A DNA stretch of 64,000 bases from Rhodococcus rhodochrous (GTDB taxonomy: Bacteria > Actinomycetota > Actinomycetes > Mycobacteriales > Mycobacteriaceae). The DNA is taken from the NCBI RefSeq assembly GCF_900187265.1, contig NZ_LT906450.1:3401444-3465443 (forward strand). The letters run 5' to 3'. Position 1 is the stretch's first letter. Each line of letters starts with the position of its first letter. Shown here piece after piece: positions 48,780 through 64,000 of this stretch. The notes under the pieces were generated by a model, which saw only the letters and a list, made by a program, of their open reading frames with translations, was not told where the DNA came from and did no database searches. The translations under genes were made by a program, and so were the position numbers.

Positions 48780-52780
<4,001 letters not shown>

Positions 52781-53049
52781 TAATCCTCCTGAATGCGCGC
52801 TCGACCTCGGGCTGGAGGCGAACGGTCTCTGGCTTGCGCTCATCGAATCGTAGACCCTCCCCGAAACGGTCGCCCTCCGGGTCCTACTCACTGTCGTACT
52901 CGACTCGCGAGGCTACCTGGAGCGGAGCCGACAACCACAATCCGAGGGTGTGCTGCACCTCACACGCAGGGACGACACCAGGTGACCTCACCACGCGCGA
53001 ACAGCCCGGGTTAGGGTGCACTTCCCCCGCAATCACAGAAGGACGACCC

Positions 53050-54057
53050 GTGCCTGTTCCCTCCTCCCGCCCCGCCCGGTTCGCGGCAGCACTGCTGACC
53101 GCCGCACTCCTCGTCGCCGGCTGCAGTTCGGCCGACACCTCCGACGACTCGTCCACCGACACCGCGTCCGACTCGGCCGCCGACTTCCCCCGGACCGTCG
53201 AACACTTCCGCGGTTCCACCACGATCGAAAGCGAGCCGACCCGCATCGTCGCGCTCGACACGAGCTACTCCGACGCCGTCCTCCTCCTCGAAGCGCCTCT
53301 CGTCGGCTACGTCGACTACCGCACCGACGAGTTCCCCGACTATCTCGGCGACTCGCGGCAGTACGCGACCGACGCCGTGTCCGTCGGCAGAACCGCGGAC
53401 GTGAGCCTCGAACAGGTGGCCGCGCTCGAACCCGACCTCATCCTCTCGGCGGAGGTGCGCGACGGGGAGAACTACGAGGAACTGTCCGCCATCGCCCCGA
53501 CCGTCTTCTCCCAGTCGACCGGACCGACGTGGAAGGACAACATCCGTCTCGTCGCGCAGGCCATCGGCAAGGAGGACCTCGCCGAGCAGAAGATCTCCGA
53601 GTACGAGGAACGCGCCGCGGCAATCGGCGCGGACATCAACGCGAAGGCGGGCAACCCCACGATCTCGGTCGTCCGCTTCGCCGGTGAGCCGACGGCGCGG
53701 CTGTACCGCACCACCTCGTTCAGCGGCATCGTGCTCGAGGACGCCGGTCTCGCCCGCCCCGCGAGCCAGGGCCCCGATCCGTCGGATCCGTCGAGCATCA
53801 TGAACGCCATCAGCCCCGAACTGATCACCGAGGCCGAGGCGGACGTCATCTTCGTCACCACCTACGACCTCGGCGACGGCAAGGCACAGGCGGCGGCCGA
53901 ACCCTTCGTCACCAATCCGCTGTGGGAGAACCTGCAGGGACGGAAGGTCGAGGTCGACGACAGCGTGTGGATGATGCCGGTGAGTATCCAGGGTGCGCAC
54001 CGCATCCTCGACGATCTCGCGGACACCTTCGGCGTCGATCGTCACACGACCGGATAG
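53050..54057 (+). CDS. fecB: Iron-siderophore-type substrate-binding lipoprotein (FecB-like)
   Basis: Extracytoplasmic solute-binding protein of 335 residues, counterpart of Rv3044 (FecB). Signal peptide with lipobox LLVAGCSS, an acidic Ser/Thr/Asp linker, then the periplasmic-binding-protein fold of the cobalamin/Fe3+-siderophore class (RIVALDTSYSDAVLLL, DVSLEQVAALEPDLILSAE, APTVFSQSTGPTWKDNI). GTG 53050 has AGAAGGACG upstream; the frame is open further back. A TAGGGT box at 53012-53017 may be its -10. No permease or ATPase is adjacent, so transport partners must be elsewhere. A homologue follows 46 nt downstream. No complete IdeR iron box was seen. Confidence 0.9.
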   Translation: MPVPSSRPARFAAALLTAALLVAGCSSADTSDDSSTDTASDSAADFPRTVEHFRGSTTIESEPTRIVALDTSYSDAVLLLEAPLVGYVDYRTDEFPDYLGDSRQYATDAVSVGRTADVSLEQVAALEPDLILSAEVRDGENYEELSAIAPTVFSQSTGPTWKDNIRLVAQAIGKEDLAEQKISEYEERAAAIGADINAKAGNPTISVVRFAGEPTARLYRTTSFSGIVLEDAGLARPASQGPDPSDPSSIMNAISPELITEAEADVIFVTTYDLGDGKAQAAAEPFVTNPLWENLQGRKVEVDDSVWMMPVSIQGAHRILDDLADTFGVDRHTTG

Positions 54058-54103
54058 CCTGAGCCGTCCGATCCGAGCAGCGTCCTACAGGAGTTGGTCC
54101 GAC

Positions 54104-55162
54104 GTGTTTTCCGTGCACCGGTCACGAGCAGTGCTCGTCGCAGCCGTCGCTGCGGTGACGACAGCCCTGGCCGGATGCTCCACACCTCCCGACGACGACG
54201 CGTCCGAGATCGTGCGCACCACGACCCGCATCGCCGGTGCGTCGGTCGTGGGCATCGACCGGGACACGTCGACCGCGTGCGCACTCCCCTCCCCGCTCGA
54301 TCCGGGACAGCCCACCACCGGCACCCGACCGGTCCTGCACACCGCAGGCCGGTCGGATGTGCCCGCCGACCCGCAGCGGATCGTCGTCCTCGACCCCGCG
54401 GCGCTCGACGCGGTGTGCGCCCTGGGCCTGTGGGAGCGCGTCGTGGGAGCGAGCGCCGAGGTCACCGGCCGGCCGGAATACCTCGGCTACGGGATCGGCG
54501 AACTCCCGCCCGTGGGTGCCGCGGGCAACCCGGACGTCGCGGCGATCGAACGCGCACAGCCGGATGTGATCCTCGGCTCCTCCACCGCCCCGGACGTGTA
54601 CGCCTCCCTCAGTGGCATCGCACCCACCGTGCTGGTCGGGTCCGATCCGGTCTTCTGGAGGGAACAGTTCGTGCGGGTCGGTGAGGCGCTCGGGCGCACG
54701 GAGGCCGCGCGGCGCGTGCTCGACGACTACGCGACGGCCGCGCGCGATCTGGGCCGCGAGCTCGTGTCGTCCCAGACGCAGGCGTCGATCGTCCGGTTCA
54801 CGCCCGACGGTCCCACCGTCGAGGGCACCGCGTCGTTCGCGGGGCAGGTGCTCGGCGACGTCGGGGCTGCCCGGCCACCGGCCCAGCGGTTCGCGGTGGT
54901 CGACGGACAACCGTGGCAGGCCGTCGACACGGAGGACCCGGCCGCCGCCGACGGCGATGTGATCTTCGTCCGCTTCGCCGGTGAGGACGGGCTCGGGGCC
55001 GGCAAGGACTACATGCAGACCGACGAGTGGCTCGACCTCGGTGCCGTGCGCGACAACCGTCTGTTCTCCGTGGCCGACGACGTGTGGTCGACCCCCGGAC
55101 CGGTCGCCGCCCGGGCGATCCTCACCGACCTGACGTACACCCTCAACGGATATTCGAACTGA
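54104..55162 (+). CDS. Second FecB-like substrate-binding lipoprotein
   Basis: Solute-binding lipoprotein of 352 residues, paralogous in fold to the preceding gene but strongly diverged. Lipobox TALAGCST; a roughly 60-residue insert with a Cys (DTSTACALPSPL) precedes the binding domain. Domain segments: DPQRIVVLDPAALDAVCALG, NPDVAAIERAQPDVILGSST, APTVLVGSDPVFWREQFVRV, DDVWSTPGPVAARAIL. GTG 54104 has ACAGGAG upstream; GTG 54113 is possible. Probably co-transcribed with the first binding protein. Ligand unknown. M. tuberculosis has only one gene here, as I recall. Confidence 0.87.
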   Translation: MFSVHRSRAVLVAAVAAVTTALAGCSTPPDDDASEIVRTTTRIAGASVVGIDRDTSTACALPSPLDPGQPTTGTRPVLHTAGRSDVPADPQRIVVLDPAALDAVCALGLWERVVGASAEVTGRPEYLGYGIGELPPVGAAGNPDVAAIERAQPDVILGSSTAPDVYASLSGIAPTVLVGSDPVFWREQFVRVGEALGRTEAARRVLDDYATAARDLGRELVSSQTQASIVRFTPDGPTVEGTASFAGQVLGDVGAARPPAQRFAVVDGQPWQAVDTEDPAAADGDVIFVRFAGEDGLGAGKDYMQTDEWLDLGAVRDNRLFSVADDVWSTPGPVAARAILTDLTYTLNGYSN

Positions 55163-55170
55163 TCGCCGAC

Positions 55171-55202
55171 TCGACCGGCGGCAGCACGATTGCCGGTATA
55201 GA
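55171..55202 (+). promoter_or_regulatory. Weak predicted promoter of the second Nudix gene
   Basis: TATAGA (55197-55202) lies 9 nt before the GTG at 55212, and TCGACC (55171-55176) sits 20 bp upstream. Spacing is long, so this is tentative; it would give a transcript with almost no leader. Confidence 0.3.
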
Positions 55203-55211
55203 AACGAGGGC

Positions 55212-55685
55212 GTGCCGATACCCGATTTCGTCCTCCAGCTCCGCTCACACGTAGGAACCGCTCCCCTGTGGCTGCCGGGGGTGAGCGCGATCGTCACGGA
55301 CGACCGTGATCGCGTCCTGCTCACCCGCCGCGCCGACAACGGCATGTGGGCCGTGGTGTCCGGCATCCTCGAACCCGGTGAGGAACCGGCGGTCGCCGCG
55401 GTCCGGGAAGTGCTCGAGGAGACGGGGGTCGCCGCCGAGATCGTGCGGCTGACGAGCGTCGATGTCACGGCACCGATCACCTATCCCAACGGCGACGTCG
55501 CGCAGTACCTCGACGTGTGCTTCCTGCTCCGCGCGACCGGCGGGGACGCACGCGTCGCCGACGACGAGAACCTCGAGGTGGCCTGGTTCGCGCCGGACGA
55601 CCTTCCCGAACCGCTCACCGAGACGTCGCGTCTGCGGCTCGGGAAGGCTCTCGCCGGCCGTGCGGAGGCGTGGTTCCGTCAGTAG
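55212..55685 (+). CDS. Nudix hydrolase, MutT-like
   Basis: Nudix protein of 157 residues with an uninterrupted box: GILEPGEEPAVAAVREVLEE followed by TGV. The N-terminus (PIPDFVLQLRSHVGTAPLWL then PGVSAIVTD) resembles actinobacterial ADP-ribose/NTP-type Nudix enzymes. Substrate unknown. Start is a GTG at 55212. Its last codons overlap by 7 nt the 3' end of the convergent arabinosyltransferase gene. Confidence 0.9.
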   Translation: MPIPDFVLQLRSHVGTAPLWLPGVSAIVTDDRDRVLLTRRADNGMWAVVSGILEPGEEPAVAAVREVLEETGVAAEIVRLTSVDVTAPITYPNGDVAQYLDVCFLLRATGGDARVADDENLEVAWFAPDDLPEPLTETSRLRLGKALAGRAEAWFRQ

Positions 55686-58600
55686 GCGGTGTTGATCGGA
55701 CCCGGGCTCCACAGACCGCTGCGTGTGACCGTGGCGGTGTCGGGTTCCACGGTCTCCGTCGACGGATCGATCGGCGTGTACTGCTCGATCGCTCCCCAGT
55801 CGCGGTCCCAGTCGTGATGGAGATACGACGGGATCGTGCGGGCCCGCAGCAACTGGTCGGTCCAGCCGAGAGGACCGCCACCGTTGTGGTCCTGCCACAG
55901 ATCCGTGGAGATGGCACCGATCCGGTCCGGCAGGATCCGGTACTCGGGGATCTCGGCGATGCCGTTGCGGTGCAACATCTGCCGCTGGCACGGGAAGTTG
56001 AGCCCGACCGCCCAGTCCAGCAGGACCGGAGTGTCGCTCCCGACGACCTGCTGCAGGGTCTGCGTCTGCGGCACGCGTGGCGGAGTGAACGCCAGCCACT
56101 GTTCGGGCGCGAGATCGTTGTCGGAGGCGACAATCCGTACCGCGTCGACCTCGCCCGGCAGCGTGTCCATCGGGACACGCAGATTCCTCCACGAGGGCGC
56201 CGGACCGATGTCGATCGGCAACGCCCGTCCCAGCGCGGTGACGCTGCCGTCGGCCGCGGTGGTCCCGTATTCGAGTTCGAGTCGCTGACCGTAGGTTTCG
56301 GTTCCGTCGGCGTCGACGGAGAAGATCCGGCCGGCCGCGGCGATGGTGACGAGATCCCCGCGCGAACCGGCTGCGTCGGGTTCGGGCAGCCGGAACCAGG
56401 CGCTCGTGACGTCACCGAGGGACGATCCGTGGCTGCCCAGCACCGGGGTGGTCGCCGGATCGAGCCCGAACGGCAAAGCGACGGTGCTGCCGTTGATTCC
56501 GACTCCGCCGGTACCACCGCCGGTGCCTCCGGTACCGCCGGTCGAGGTCTGGTCGTCGTTCGTGTCGACCGTGTTGGCGGTACCGGCCGAGGCCGAGTCG
56601 TCGTCCGGGGTCAGATCGAGGGCGACACCACCCGGCGTGAACCCGTCCCCTCCTCCGGCATCGAGAGCGGTGGCCGTGTCGGCGCCGATCGGAGTGAGCA
56701 CCGAGGCGTTCGGGTCCGTCTCGAGCAACACGTCGTTCGCGAGCGCACACGAGTTGCCGGTGAGCGTGTCGAAGTTGGACCGTGCCACCGAATAACCCGG
56801 GTACTGCGAGATCGCGCCCTTGGCCAGTGACAGCACCTCGAACAGCACCATCGCGGCGGCGGCGACGGTCAACGGCGGCACCGCCCACAACCGGGACGGG
56901 ACGTCGGTGCGGGTGGAGGCGACGGGGTGGATGTGCCACCACGCGGCGAGCAGCAAGGCGACGACCGTCACCGCGAAGAACACGGTGGAGAAGCCGAACC
57001 CGGCGACCGACGGCGGCTTGTCCCACCACGGGACCCCGTAGCTCGAGACGTACCACCAGCCGTTGGGGCCGATGAACGACATGGTCACCACGAACGACAC
57101 CGCCGCGGCGAACAGGGCGCGGTTGCGTCGCGAACGCAGCACCGCGGGGCCGGTGGCCACGGCGGCGAGCATCGCCACTGCGGCCGCCAGACCTGCGTAG
57201 ATCCCGAAGTGGTGGGTCCACTTGGTGGGCGCGAACATCATCAGCACCAGCGCGCCGAGGGTGATGCCGACGATGCGGCGGGACGGACCCTGCGCGGTGC
57301 CGGGGATGTGCCCACCGCGGCGCAGCATCGCCACGATCGCCACTGCCAGGCACAACGCCAGGGTGAAGACCGCGAACCTGCGGGCCAGCGAGCCGTCCAC
57401 GGTGATCTGCAACAGGTACTGGTAGCGCAGATACTCCTGGAACCACGGCACGTTCGGGCCGACACCGTGCACGTGCTGCATCTCCAGCACCGCCGCGAGA
57501 GTCTGGTCGGCGAAGACCGGCACCAGGATCACCAGTCCGGCCGCGAGCATCGGCGCGAGAACCGGCAGCCATCCCAGGGTCTGTGCCCGTCGATGGAGGA
57601 TGCGGGCGATGGGGCGGGCACCGGCGATCAGCGCGGCGAAACAGATGATGCCCGAACGGTCCCGCGGTCACGGTGAGCGCGGCGACGAGGATCGCGGCCG
57701 CCGCGGGCAGCAGACGCCGGGTGGCGATCGCGCGTTCGACCGAGCACCAGGTGAGCACGATGCCCGTCGCGACGATCGGTTCCGGGCGCAGTCCGTTGTT
57801 GAGCGGCAGCCAGAACGCCAGGAACACCAGCGCCCCGGTCCACAGCGGAAGCCGGTTGCGGCGCAGCGCGACGCCGAGACGCGGAGCGACCTCGCGGCTG
57901 AGCACCCACCAGCACAGGATTCCGGCGGTCAGCGCCGGTAGCCGCATCCAGATGCTCGCCGTCGAGACCTGGGTCATCAGGGCGAGGACGTCGTAGAAGG
58001 GGGTACCGAAGGGCGCTTCGGGCACACCGAACCACCGGAAGTAGTTCGCCATGTACCCGGCCTCACCCGCGGCGCGGGCCATCCCGAGCTGATAGCCGTC
58101 GTCGGCGGTGTTCGCCCCGATGACATGCCAGAGGAGCAGCGTTCCGGCGACCAGCGCGTCGATGCGGGTGAACGACCACCAGGACGCCGGCAACAGGCGA
58201 CGGTGAAGACGACCGTCGGCGCGATCGAGCCGGGCCAGCGTCCACAACGCCAGTGCCGTGGCCACCACCGCGACGATCATCGCGACGATCTTCAGCACTG
58301 TCGGAGACGTCGTGAAACGGGTGTCGACGGTCGCGGTGACCGAGACACCGTCGAGTGCGGGTCCGGGCAGGTCGGTGAAGATGCCGACCAGTTGGGGCCG
58401 CAGGTCGCGGTCGAAGGTCCGCTCCCCCGCCGCCCCGGCAGAGCCGGTGATCGTGGCGACGGTGCGTTCCGAGTTCGAGGACAGGGTGATCGAGCAGTCC
58501 CCGGCCAGGTCGTCCACCGGTGCCGAGGAGAGCAGCGTGTTGCGGGAGATCACCTCGAACATCGCCGGCCCGTCGTCACCGGCCGGCCGGACACGGGCGA

Positions 58601-58955
58601 TCAGTCCGTAGCGCTCACGGTCGGGAGCTCCCGAGGGGAGTGTGGAGAAGACGGTGCCGCCGTCCGGCAGCGCATCGCGCACGGACCGGCACTCGATCGT
58701 GGCGTCGAGATCGACCGGCGCATAGGACACCAGCGGGGCCGAGATGCCGGCGTTGCTCCCGCCCTGCGGCCAGTCGATGGTCGAAGTGGTCTGTGTCACG
58801 GGCAGGAACGGCATCGCGATCGATGCGGCGATCCCCACGACGGCGGCGAGCACCGCCCACAGACGGGTCCGCTGGTCGACTGCTCGCCCGCCCGAAGGCG
58901 CGCGTTCGGTTGTCACCGGCCGAGGCGAGCCCGACGCTTCTCTTGTCTCGGTCAC
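55679..58955 (-). pseudogene. emb: Arabinosyltransferase (Emb family) with a frameshift
   Basis: Homologue of EmbA/B/C, which add arabinofuranose from decaprenyl-phosphoarabinose to cell-wall arabinogalactan or lipoarabinomannan. From GTG 58955 the first frame encodes the N-terminal domain and membrane helices with the GT-C acidic motif in GANTADDGYQLGMARAAGE, up to LVAALTVTAGPFG; there the frame is lost. From about 57652 a second frame continues GIICFAALIAGARPIARI and on through the C-terminal carbohydrate-binding domain to the stop at 55679. Total length is 3277 nt, 1092 codons plus one base, so a single extra base (CCC at 57651-57653 on the plus strand is the likely run) accounts for it. 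An intact protein would be about 1091 residues, the Emb length. Real mutation or sequencing error cannot be told apart here. Confidence 0.85.
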
Positions 58956-58999
58956 GAGGAGCGATGCTATCGGTGACGGGCCGGGCCGCGAAAAGCACA

Positions 59000-59041
59000 C
59001 GATCCCGCACCCGGGCGCTGCTGCGCCGGTGTGCGGGATCG
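59000..59041 (-). terminator. Terminator of the nrd genes
   Basis: CGATCCCGCAC (59000-59010) pairs over 11 bp with GTGCGGGATCG (59031-59041); the 20-nt loop can fold further through GCGC pairs with one bulge. It is 33 nt after the nrdF stop. Confidence 0.7.
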
Positions 59042-59074
59042 ATGCGTTCGGGCCGGTGACGGAGAATGTCTACG

Positions 59075-60079
<1,005 letters not shown>

Positions 60080-60128
60080 TTACCTACCTGAATTGTGTGC
60101 TGGTGCAAGGACTGTCGGGGAGAACGGA

Positions 60129-62294
60129 TCACAGCATGCAGGAGACGCAGTTCTCCACCTCGGTGCCCTCGAGCGCCATCTGCCGCAGGCGGATGTAGTA
60201 CAGGGTCTTGATTCCCTTGCGCCACGCGTAGATCTGGGCCTTGTTCACGTCGCGGGTGGTGACGGTGTCCTTGAAGAACAGCGTCAGCGACAGCCCCTGG
60301 TCGACGTGCTGCGTCGCGGCAGCGTAGGTGTCGATGATCTTCTCGTAGCCGATCTCGTAGGCATCCTGGAAGTACTCGAGATTCTCGTTCGTCATGTAGG
60401 GCGCCGGGTAGTAGACACGCCCGATCTTGCCCTCCTTGCGGATCTCGATCTTCGACGCGACCGGGTGGATCGAGCTCGTCGAGTGGTTGATGTACGAGAT
60501 CGAACCGGTGGGCGGAACCGCCTGCAGGTTCTGGTTGTAGATGCCGTGCTTCTGCACGGACTCCTTCAGCTCGCGCCAGTCCTGCTGCGTGGGGATCGTG
60601 ATGTTCGACTCGGCGAACAGCTGACGGACCCGCTCGGTCGCGGGCTCCCACACCTGATCGGTGTACTTGTCGAAGAACTCACCCGACGCGTACTTCGACT
60701 CCGGGAAGCCCTTGAAGTACGTACCGCGCTCGATCGCGATCTTGTTCGACGCACGCAGGGCGTGGAACAGCACGGTGTAGAAGTAGATGTTCGTGAAGTC
60801 GACGCCTTCTTCGGACCCGTAGAAGATGTGCTCGCGGGCGAGGAAGCCGTGCAGGTTCATCTGGCCGAGGCCGATGGCGTGGGATTCGTTGTTGCCCCGC
60901 TCGATCGACGGCACCGACGAGATCGTCGTCTGGTCGGAGACGGCCGTCAGGCCGCGGATGGCGACCTCGATGGTCTGCGCGAAGTCGGGCGAGTCCATCG
61001 TCTTCGCGATGTTCAGCGAGCCGAGGTTGCACGAGATGTCCTTGCCCACATGGCTGTAGGACAGGTCGTCGTTGAACTCCGAGGGGGTCGAGACCTGCAG
61101 GATCTCCGAGCACAGGTTCGAGTGCGTGATCTTTCCGGCGATCGGGTTGGCCCGGTTCACCGTGTCCTCGAACATGACGTAGGGGTAGCCCGACTCGAAC
61201 TGCAGCTCGGCGACGGTCTGGAAGAACTCGCGCGCCTTGATCTTCGACTTGCGGATGCGCTTGTCGTCGACCATCTCGTAGTACTTCTCGGTGACGTCGA
61301 TGTCAGCGAAGGGCTTGCCGTAGACACGCTCGACGTCGTACGGCGAGAACAGGTACATGTCCTCGTTCTTCTTCGCCAGCTCGAACGTGATATCGGGGAT
61401 GACGACGCCCAGCGAGAGGGTCTTGATGCGAATCTTCTCGTCGGCGTTCTCGCGCTTGGTGTCGAGGAAACGGTAGATGTCGGGGTGATGCGCGTGCAGG
61501 TAGACCGCACCGGCACCCTGACGGGCACCGAGCTGGTTGGCGTAGGAGAACGAGTCCTCGAGCAGCTTCATGATCGGGATGACGCCGGAGGACTGGTTCT
61601 CGATCTTCTTGATCGGGGCGCCGTGCTCACGAATGTTGCTGAGCAGCAAGGCGACACCGCCACCGCGCTTGGACAGTTGCAGTGCGGAGTTGATGGAGCG
61701 GCCGATCGACTCCATGTTGTCCTCGATGCGGAGCAGGAAGCACGAGACGGGCTCGCCGCGCTGCTTCTTGCCCGAGTTGAGGAAGGTCGGGGTGGCCGGC
61801 TGGAAACGACCCGAGATGATCTCGTCGACGAGGTGCCGGGCGAGGATCTCGTCGCCGTCGGCGAGCGTCAGCGCGACCATGCACACGCGGTCCTCGAAAC
61901 GCTCGAGGTAGCGCTTGCCGTCGAACGTCTTGAGCGTGTACGAGGTGTAGTACTTGAACGCACCGAGGAAGGTCGGGAACCGGAACTTCTTCGAATATGC
62001 GTGCTCGAACAGCGATTTGACGAATGCGCGCGAATACTTCTCGAGCACCTCGGGCTCGTAGTAGTTCTCCTCGACGAGGTAGTCGAGCTTCTCGTCGAGG
62101 TTGTGGAAGAAGACCGTGTTCTGGTTGACGTGCTGCAGGAAGTACTGACGGGCGGCGGCCACATCCTTGTCGAACTGGATCTCGCCGTTGGGGCCGTACA
62201 GATTCAACATCGCGTTGAGCGCGTGGTAGTCGAGATCCTTGAGCGAATCGTCGAGGTGTGCGCTCGTGGCGGGAGCGGGATCGGTAATGGTCAC
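60129..62294 (-). CDS. nrdE: Class Ib ribonucleotide reductase, alpha subunit
   Basis: Catalytic subunit that reduces ribonucleoside diphosphates. The 721 residues contain [26 protein letters not shown] with catalytic Cys, the [11 protein letters not shown] region, the radical-transfer Tyr pair in the C-terminal part and the C-terminal VENCVSCML, whose CxxC is re-reduced by NrdH. The N-terminal ATP-cone of class Ia enzymes is absent, as expected for NrdE. GTG 62294 is the start. An 83-nt gap separates it from nrdI. Long open frames on the opposite strand here are codon-bias shadows. Confidence 0.98.
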
Positions 62295-62377
62295 AGTGCT
62301 GTCCCCACTTGTCGGAGTTAGGAAACGGCCGCGCAGTCACGTCCGCGACGCGCGTCGAATACGGATACGGATGTGGC

Positions 62378-62830
62378 TCAGGCGTTCTGGAGAACGGACT
62401 CCCAGAATCGGGCGAGACCGTCGCGGACACGCTCGACGTCGTCGGTCGTGCCCATCAACTCGAACCGGTACAGATACGGCACCTTGCACTTGCGCGAGAC
62501 GATGTCTCCCGCGAAACAGTACGAGTCGCCGAAGTTGGTGTTACCCGCCGCGATGACACCGCGGATCAGGCTCCGATTGTGCTCGTTGTTGAGGAATCGG
62601 ATGACCTGTTTGGGAACGTAGCGGGTATCGCGGCCCGTGGCGGTCGTCCCGCCACCGTAGGTCGGCACGATCAGTACGTACGGATCGCGGACCTCGAAAT
62701 TCCCCTCACGATCGTGCAGCGGGATCCGGCTGGCCGGGATCCCGAGTTTCTGCACGAATCGGTGGGTGTTCTCGGATGTACTCGAGAAGTACACCAGCGA
62801 TGTTCCCGGGATCGACCCCAGCGAAGCCAT
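62378..62830 (-). CDS. nrdI: NrdI flavodoxin-like protein
   Basis: Flavodoxin-fold protein of 150 residues that supplies the oxidant for making the Mn-tyrosyl radical in NrdF. Recognisable segments: [18 protein letters not shown] with the FMN phosphate loop, [12 protein letters not shown], the NrdI-type [20 protein letters not shown] and [10 protein letters not shown]. It follows nrdH after a 106-nt gap holding two hairpins, and precedes nrdE. Start ATG at 62830. Confidence 0.96.
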
Positions 62831-62868
62831 CGGTAGTCACCACTCTTCATTCGATTGCGAAGACCGGC

Positions 62869-62897
62869 CCGGGCGGACACGGAAGACGTCCGCCCGG
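62869..62897 (-). other. Second hairpin in the nrdH-nrdI gap
   Basis: CCGGGCGGAC (62869-62878) pairs over 10 bp with GTCCGCCCGG (62888-62897), loop 9 nt. It sits between nrdH and nrdI in the transcribed strand and may be a partial terminator or an RNA-processing or stabilising element. Confidence 0.6.
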
Positions 62898-62910
62898 AGA
62901 CGACGACGAT

Positions 62911-62933
62911 CGGGCCGCTGCGAACGCGGCCCG
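62911..62933 (-). other. First hairpin after nrdH
   Basis: CGGGCCGC (62911-62918) pairs over 8 bp with GCGGCCCG (62926-62933), loop 7 nt, directly after the nrdH stop. Confidence 0.55.
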
Positions 62934-62936
62934 GGC

Positions 62937-63167
62937 TCAGGCAGCGACGGTGAGCGCCTTGATGCGATCGGGGCGGAAGCCCGACCAGTGGTCGTCGCCG
63001 GCGACGACGACGGGCGCCTGGAGGTATCCCAGCGCCATGACGTAGTCGCGGGCCTCGGGGTTCTCACTGATGTCGACGACGTCGTACTCGATGCCGGCCT
63101 TGTCGAGGGCGCGGTAGGTGGCAGTGCACTGGACGCAGGCAGGCTTGGTGTAGACGGTGATGTTCAT
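62937..63167 (-). CDS. nrdH: NrdH glutaredoxin-like redoxin
   Basis: Small redox protein of 76 residues that delivers electrons to NrdE. Begins MNITVYTKPACVQCTATYRA, with the CVQC active site at Cys11/Cys14; the QAPVVVAGDDHWSGFRPDRI end is the NrdH signature including the WSGFRPD motif that sets thioredoxin reductase as its partner. First gene of the nrd set. ATG 63167 has AAAGGGG upstream. Controlled by the promoter and NrdR boxes about 130-180 nt upstream, leaving a leader of roughly 150 nt. Confidence 0.97.
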   Translation of the reverse strand: MNITVYTKPACVQCTATYRALDKAGIEYDVVDISENPEARDYVMALGYLQAPVVVAGDDHWSGFRPDRIKALTVAA

Positions 63168-63297
63168 GAATGCCCCTTTTCCGACGGCCGTGGGCGGCCT
63201 GACGACTGACTGCTGTGCGTTACCCGGAAGCCCACTTATCCGTCCGATCCCGCTTCCCCGAGAGATCGTCGGCGCTTGTGGCCCTCCAGCGGTCTAG

Positions 63298-63313
63298 ACA
63301 CTACACCTTGTGC
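63298..63313. promoter_or_regulatory. NrdR box 1
   Basis: ACACTACACCTTGTGC matches the NrdR consensus ACACWATATATWGTGT at 12 of 16 positions. Box 2 starts 32 bp away, the three-turn spacing known for NrdR box pairs. Confidence 0.7.
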
Positions 63314-63329
63314 CCGTCGGATACATAGA

Positions 63330-63345
63330 ACCCAGGATGTTGTGA
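63330..63345. promoter_or_regulatory. NrdR box 2
   Basis: ACCCAGGATGTTGTGA is a weaker match to the NrdR consensus (TTGTG arm good, other arm partial), placed 32 bp from box 1. The probable nrdH promoter overlaps this pair, so NrdR bound to both boxes would block it. NrdR itself is not encoded in the window. Confidence 0.55.
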
Positions 63346-63519
63346 CTTACAAAGGTGATATTCCCAGGTCGCGACCCTCCCTCCACGGCGTTTCGGGCGT
63401 GTCTCGGCGTGTCGCCGCAGTGTGCCCGACAGAGACCTCGAGCACAGTGTGGCGGGTGCCACCGACAACTTCGCGAGGGCGCCGCAAGAACACCTCCCGA
63501 CTGCGCTGTGCGGGGAAGC

Positions 63520-63565
63520 CGGAGGCGGGACGAGCGACCACTTCCGATCGCTCGTCCCGCCTCCG
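63520..63565 (-). terminator. Terminator of the molybdopterin-binding subunit gene
   Basis: A perfect 18-bp stem, CGGAGGCGGGACGAGCGA (63520-63537) with its complement at 63548-63565, and a 10-nt loop, starting 11 nt after the stop of the gene to the right. Confidence 0.8.
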
Positions 63566-63575
63566 ATCCGGTGTG

Positions 63576-64000
63576 TCAGGGCAGTCCGGCCAGCAGGTCG
63601 TCGAGGCGGGCCGGCAGGTTCCGGACCCGCACCCCGGTCGCGTGCCACAGGGCGTTGACGACCGCCGCCGCGCTGCCCACGATCCCGATCTCACCGATCC
63701 CCCGCGACCCCATGGGGGTCGCATGCAGATCTTCGTCGTCGAGCCACTCCGCTTCGATTCCGCGGATGTCGGCGTGCGTCGGGACGTGGTACTCGGACAG
63801 GTCGTGGTTGACGACGTGCCCGAAACGGGCGTCACGGATGCTCTCTTCGAACAGCGCCATCGAGATCCCGAACGACATCCCGCCGATGAACTGCGACCGC
63901 GCCGTCCGCGGGTTGATGACCCGTCCCACGGAGAACAGCCCGAACATCCGGGGCACCCGGATCTCGCCGGTGTCGGCGTCGACGTGCACCTCGGCGAAGT
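63576..64000 (-). CDS. Molybdopterin-binding xanthine-dehydrogenase-family subunit, partial
   Basis: C-terminal 141 residues of a large molybdenum hydroxylase subunit; the 5' part lies beyond the window. It shows the family end: EVHVDADTGEIRVPRMFGLF, GRVINPRTARSQFIGGMSFG, HVVNHDLSEYHVPTHADIRG, the MGSRGIGEIGIVGSAAAVVN segment with the Glu that is the catalytic base in this family, and RNLPARLDDLLAGLP. Substrate (purine, aldehyde, carbon monoxide or an N-heterocycle) cannot be told from this part. Transcribed towards nrdH but insulated by a strong terminator. Confidence 0.92.
   Translation of the reverse strand, partial: FAEVHVDADTGEIRVPRMFGLFSVGRVINPRTARSQFIGGMSFGISMALFEESIRDARFGHVVNHDLSEYHVPTHADIRGIEAEWLDDEDLHATPMGSRGIGEIGIVGSAAAVVNALWHATGVRVRNLPARLDDLLAGLP

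What the first reader, a model, noticed from the sequence alone, without database searches (positions are those of the whole stretch)
55679..58955. Full-length emb arabinosyltransferase split by one extra base
Two open frames on the minus strand encode the N-terminal and C-terminal parts of one Emb protein. The total, 3277 nt, is 1092 codons plus one base, and both frames read as good Emb sequence on either side of a single point near 57651-57653 (a GGG run on the coding strand). Emb proteins build cell-wall arabinan and are ethambutol targets, so loss, phase variation by slippage, or a split protein would all matter. A sequencing error is the plain alternative.
Basis: partly seen in the sequence, partly recalled or inferred. 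Interest (0 to 1): 0.7.

Follow-up and report, generated by a model that had tools for sequence, protein, structure and literature searches.

The report
Frameshifted accessory Emb arabinosyltransferase gene
A Rhodococcus genome carries an extra copy of a cell-wall sugar-transfer gene that is broken in two by a single reading-frame slip not seen in its close relatives; it is either a very recent loss of a dispensable gene or a sequencing error, and two intact genes of the same family remain elsewhere in the genome.

Summary
An emb-type arabinosyltransferase gene on the minus strand changes frame once. The N half (58955-57657, 433 aa) and the C half (57655-55682, 658 aa) both match the Emb Pfam domains; the total is 3n+1.

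The gene is a third Emb, outside the intact emb pair of the same genome, in a separate, supported Rhodococcus clade. All ten other genus genomes that carry it read one frame across the break site. Both halves still show purifying selection and no stops, so a real loss would be very recent.

It is the only clear mid-gene frame break of this genome among 413 genes compared with a close relative; two other rows stay unresolved. The gene looks dispensable: 6 of 18 genus genomes show no copy and one keeps a decayed remnant. I favour a recent natural null mutation (about 0.6) over sequencing error (about 0.35). I found no support for phase variation, programmed frameshifting or a functional split. 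Low interest.

The parts
57657..58955 (-). N-terminal half of third Emb (433 codons): N-terminal binding domain and first part of the GT-C membrane domain, with an Asp-Asp pair at residues 285-286
   Evidence: Pfam PF17689 and PF04602 1-216; aligned to solved EmbC through the ADDGY stretch; motif position; frame listed from 59000
57650..57660 (-). Stretch in which the reading frame changes, at about 57656; net length 3n+1 relative to relatives
   Evidence: the GGG run 57651-57653 itself is unchanged in the four nearest relatives
55679..57655 (-). C-terminal half of third Emb (658 codons plus stop): rest of the membrane domain and C-terminal binding domain; frame open from 57667, first listed start codon ATG at 57550
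   Evidence: Pfam PF04602 217-458 and PF14896
56412..57656 (-). Out-of-frame continuation of the N-half frame: 414 codons, 42% Arg+His+Pro, no TM-like segment by a simple hydropathy scan
59078..60076 (-). nrdF, ribonucleotide reductase small chain, upstream neighbour
   Evidence: Pfam PF00268
55212..55685 (+). NUDIX hydrolase gene, convergent, overlapping the emb end by 7 bases; directly next to nrdF in 10 genus genomes that have no emb there
   Evidence: Pfam PF00293

Best explanation
A third, accessory Emb arabinosyltransferase gene, located between nrdF and a NUDIX gene in one Rhodococcus clade, has suffered one recent frameshift private to this genome. Shown: the frame change; its absence in the relatives examined; purifying selection in both halves; two intact Emb genes elsewhere in the genome. 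Inferred: the frameshift is a real mutation; translation of the N half runs into a 414-residue Arg/His/Pro-rich out-of-frame tail without membrane segments, so no working GT-C enzyme is made; the strain tolerates this because the intact pair makes the core arabinan and the third copy is optional.
For: The break is private among the genomes seen: all 10 other genus members that carry the gene read one frame across this site (nine of them in one frame throughout the matched part). dN/dS of own against G002, G004, G006, G015 is 0.12-0.19 (N half) and 0.08-0.10 (C half), close to the values between those relatives, with no stop in either half, so the lesion is young. The gene is dispensable: no copy seen in 6 of 18 genus genomes, a decayed remnant in G016, a separate frame change in R. 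rhodnii L068. Among 413 comparable genes (about 490 kb coding) emb is the only clear mid-gene frame break of this genome. Two intact paralogues lie at 235-242 kb. No run longer than three bases is at the break.
Against: No reads and no second genome of this species were available, so an isolated assembly error is not excluded. The lack of a second lesion and of relaxed selection is what an error would show too. The survey bounds residual error only loosely, its threshold was set after seeing the rows, and two rows stay unresolved.
Confidence: 0.6

Rival explanations
1. Sequencing or assembly error: the strain's gene is intact and codes for a full third Emb.
For: One isolated one-base-size length difference; both halves under normal purifying selection and free of stops; no relative examined shares it.
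Against: Only clear break of this genome in 413 surveyed genes; single-contig assembly, 100% complete, 0.11% contamination; no run longer than three bases at the site; other genus members have lost the gene.
Confidence: 0.35
2. Programmed ribosomal +1 frameshifting yields a full Emb from the two frames.
For: Both halves are conserved, and the N frame has no early stop after the break.
Against: No relative examined needs a shift; the RNA after the site folds less stably than 195 of 200 shuffles (z 1.77); no stop codon at the site.
Confidence: 0.02
3. Phase variation by slippage in a repeat tract, or two separately working half-proteins.
Against: The G run is three bases and unchanged in the four nearest relatives; no tandem array covers the break; no relative examined is split at this site; the break lies inside the GT-C membrane domain, with the Asp pair in one half and the C-terminal binding domain in the other.
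Confidence: 0.03

Closest known systems
EmbC/EmbB/EmbA arabinosyltransferases (Pfam PF17689 + PF04602 + PF14896; solved structures 7bvh, 7bvf, 7bvc)
   Same: All three domains in the usual order, and an Asp-Asp pair aligned to EmbC. Both halves match solved EmbC best (417 and 620 bits).
   Different: Not in the emb pair; in a separate clade from the paired Rhodococcus Emb genes; broken by one frame change in this genome.
The two paired Emb genes of the same genome (235102-238380 and 238470-241679)
   Same: Same family; 54-60% identical over the two halves.
   Different: Open frames of 1125 and 1117 codons without stops; nearest solved relatives are EmbB for the first (1095 bits, EmbC almost equal at 1087) and EmbC for the second (1175 bits).
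Frameshifted pseudogenes and isolated indel errors in bacterial genomes (recalled)
   Same: One frame-breaking length change in an otherwise normal, dispensable gene.
   Different: Nothing found to differ, except that relaxed selection has not set in.

Membership tests
Emb arabinosyltransferase (GT-C) | N-terminal binding domain, GT-C membrane domain and C-terminal binding domain in order | tested here: met
   each half searched apart
Emb arabinosyltransferase (GT-C) | Adjacent Asp pair required for catalysis (D285/D286 of M. smegmatis EmbB and counterparts; PMC7341804, passages only) | tested here: met
   Asp-Asp at residues 285-286 of the N half; aligned ADDGY in EmbC
Emb arabinosyltransferase (GT-C) | One continuous reading frame | tested here: not met
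   met in nine genus relatives over the matched part
Emb arabinosyltransferase (GT-C) | Arabinosyl transfer activity | not testable with these tools
   None
Frameshift pseudogene | Intact orthologues in relatives, disrupted frame here | tested here: met
Frameshift pseudogene | Relaxed selection or further lesions | tested here: not met
   dN/dS 0.08-0.19 and no stops; fits only a very recent event or an error
Frameshift pseudogene | Frame change confirmed in independent sequence of the strain | not testable with these tools
   No reads and no second genome of the species held
Phase-variable gene | Simple-sequence tract at the frame change | tested here: not met
Programmed frameshift gene | Frame change conserved among orthologues | tested here: not met

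The most novel reading that the evidence does not exclude
Rhodococcus has an optional third Emb clade that moves between genomic sites and is repeatedly lost: present in 11 of 18 genus genomes, at the nrdF/NUDIX junction in only five of these, a decayed remnant in one further species, frame-broken in this genome and in R. rhodnii. It may tailor arabinan (lipoarabinomannan or arabinogalactan side chains) in a strain-specific way, and this genome would be caught just after its loss.
Probability: 0.4. Interest if true: 0.35.

Novelty: new member of a known kind. Interest (0 to 1): 0.17.

Why it matters
As a single frameshift it is ordinary. The useful part is the context: the broken gene is not one of the paired emb genes but an accessory third Emb whose presence varies among Rhodococcus species, so it offers a natural comparison for what an extra Emb adds to cell-wall arabinan. 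It also warns against reading a cell-wall or drug-response phenotype from this locus alone.

Tried and rejected
Slippage at the GGG run: the run has the same length in G002, G004, G006 and G015.

Phase variation: Tandem Repeats Finder gave two weak short arrays in 55600-59100, neither covering the break.

Programmed frameshifting: the RNA after the site is not unusually stable (z 1.77; two relatives -0.17 and 0.03), and the frame change is not conserved.

An error-ridden assembly: a first blastn indel survey aligned only 118 kb, because my guessed positions in G004 mostly missed, and was confused by intergenic indels. Gene-level surveys followed. In one search, 413 of 464 G004 ORFs matched this genome over at least 60%; 18 rows showed a frame change, and only emb had coding-like composition (GC3-GC2 of at least 0.20) on both sides. 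I set that threshold after seeing the rows. I read the other rows mostly as over-extended starts or overlapping genes, but checked only three (SDR, fasciclin and FAD-oxidase genes). Two stay unresolved: a 170-codon ORF (0.11 and 0.23, but 0.24 in the last 150 nt before the change) and a 1056-codon ORF with two changes (0.20, 0.12 and 0.44). In the reverse direction 415 of 440 ORFs matched and 5 of 31 rows pass the same threshold; these would be changes in G004 and were not examined.

Searches without a match: Rfam at gathering scores in 52000-64000; NCBIfam for both halves. PADLOC and PHROGs were not searched.

Literature: six searches, of which searches listed only 15 of 30 and 8 of 53 papers. 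No listed title is about a third Rhodococcus Emb. I saw listings with the starts of abstracts, and passages of three papers (PMC3388012, PMC3229680, PMC7341804); no paper was read whole.

Full report
OBSERVATION. The window is G000:C1:3401444-3465443 of a single-contig 5.27 Mb genome, 100% complete. On the minus strand, the frame listed from 59000 carries Emb sequence from 58955 to 57657 and then continues as non-Emb sequence to 56412. A second frame, open from 57667, carries Emb sequence from 57655 to the stop at 55679-55681. Pfam splits the membrane domain between them, positions 1-216 in one half and 217-458 in the other, with the N- and C-terminal binding domains on the outer sides. The length is 3n+1.

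WHAT IT IS. The same genome has two more Emb genes, side by side at 235102-241679, in open frames without stops. Their best solved matches are EmbB (with EmbC almost equal) and EmbC. The broken gene is a third copy. In a tree of 136 C-half sequences it falls in a clade of 22 rows with SH-aLRT 100, apart from the paired genes (quick method, midpoint root, Nocardia row L076 on a long branch). The Asp-Asp pair that passages of PMC7341804 describe as required for catalysis in related Emb proteins is present at residues 285-286 of the N half.

RELATIVES. Of 18 genomes of the genus (this one included), 11 carry the third copy by my reading. All ten others read one frame across the break site. Nine of them are in one frame over the whole matched part (L110-L118; G009 is cut by its contig end). 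The tenth, G005 (75% complete, 950 contigs), reads through the break site in one frame but seems to change frame near residue 100, and its nrdF is split over two frames too, so its assembly is unreliable. Six genomes show no copy (G003, G007, G008, G012, G014, G017). G016 keeps a remnant spanning about 270 residues of the family, with gaps and more than one frame. Of the named loci, 16 that I assigned to the third clade were checked: 15 are in one frame over the matched part, and R. rhodnii L068 changes frame near residue 386. That leaves 20 distinct copies besides this genome's, 19 of them in one frame. L076, the G005 copy and the G016 remnant are outside that count.

SITE. In G008 and G012, and in eight other genomes (G001, G005, G007, G009, G011, G013, G014, G017), nrdF and NUDIX are neighbours with no emb between. 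G003 and G010 show neither emb nor a NUDIX match next to nrdF, and G016's contig ends there. G001, G009, G010, G011 and G013 have the gene in fetched stretches without any match to the nrd genes. The simplest history is insertion at nrdF/NUDIX in one clade; this is inference.

AGE. dN/dS between this genome and its four nearest relatives is 0.118-0.188 for the N half and 0.081-0.102 for the C half; among those relatives it is 0.110-0.223 and 0.086-0.107. From those numbers I estimate the private branch by hand at about 0.16 (N) and 0.09 (C). Neither half has a stop. A real break must be very recent.

ERROR OR MUTATION. Among 413 genes compared with G004 (about 490 kb coding), emb is the only clear mid-gene break of this genome, by a threshold set after seeing the rows; two of the 18 rows stay unresolved. 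Taking 0 of the other 412, the rule of three gives at most about 0.7% of genes, so isolated errors remain possible. With no reads I put a real mutation at 0.6 and an error at 0.35. The gene's dispensability in the genus tips the balance towards mutation; this is judgement.

MECHANISM. If real, the N half would run into 414 residues that are 42% Arg, His and Pro with no membrane-like segment by a simple hydropathy scan. The Asp pair would be cut off from the rest of the membrane domain and the C-terminal binding domain. A null is the likely outcome. Frameshifting, phase variation and a functional split found no support.

COMPARISON AND VERDICT. Family and lesion are both of known kinds. The mildly new point is the patchy third Emb clade in Rhodococcus, found at different sites. 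Six paper searches listed no title about it, but two lists were capped and the library lacks most subscription journals.

Noticed in passing
L111:2673-3860 (G002, inside nrdE): The NrdE of G002 is interrupted by about 1.2 kb with Hint and LAGLIDADG matches, that is, a probable intein; the NrdE in this window (60132-62294) has none.
   Followed up: partly
L119:6998-7656 (G016): Decayed remnant of the third emb, spanning about 270 residues with gaps and more than one frame, in a genome with no full third copy.
   Followed up: partly
L068:1318-1327 (R. rhodnii NBRC 100604): An independent frame change in the third emb near residue 386; draft genome, so it may be an error.
   Followed up: partly
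window 52990-55159: Two neighbouring periplasmic binding protein genes (PF01497) beside the emb/nrd region; the two types are about 30% identical to each other when compared across genomes.
   Followed up: no
window 56516-56542: A short nine-base tandem repeat in a Thr/Gly-rich part of the C half of the gene; not at the break.
   Followed up: no
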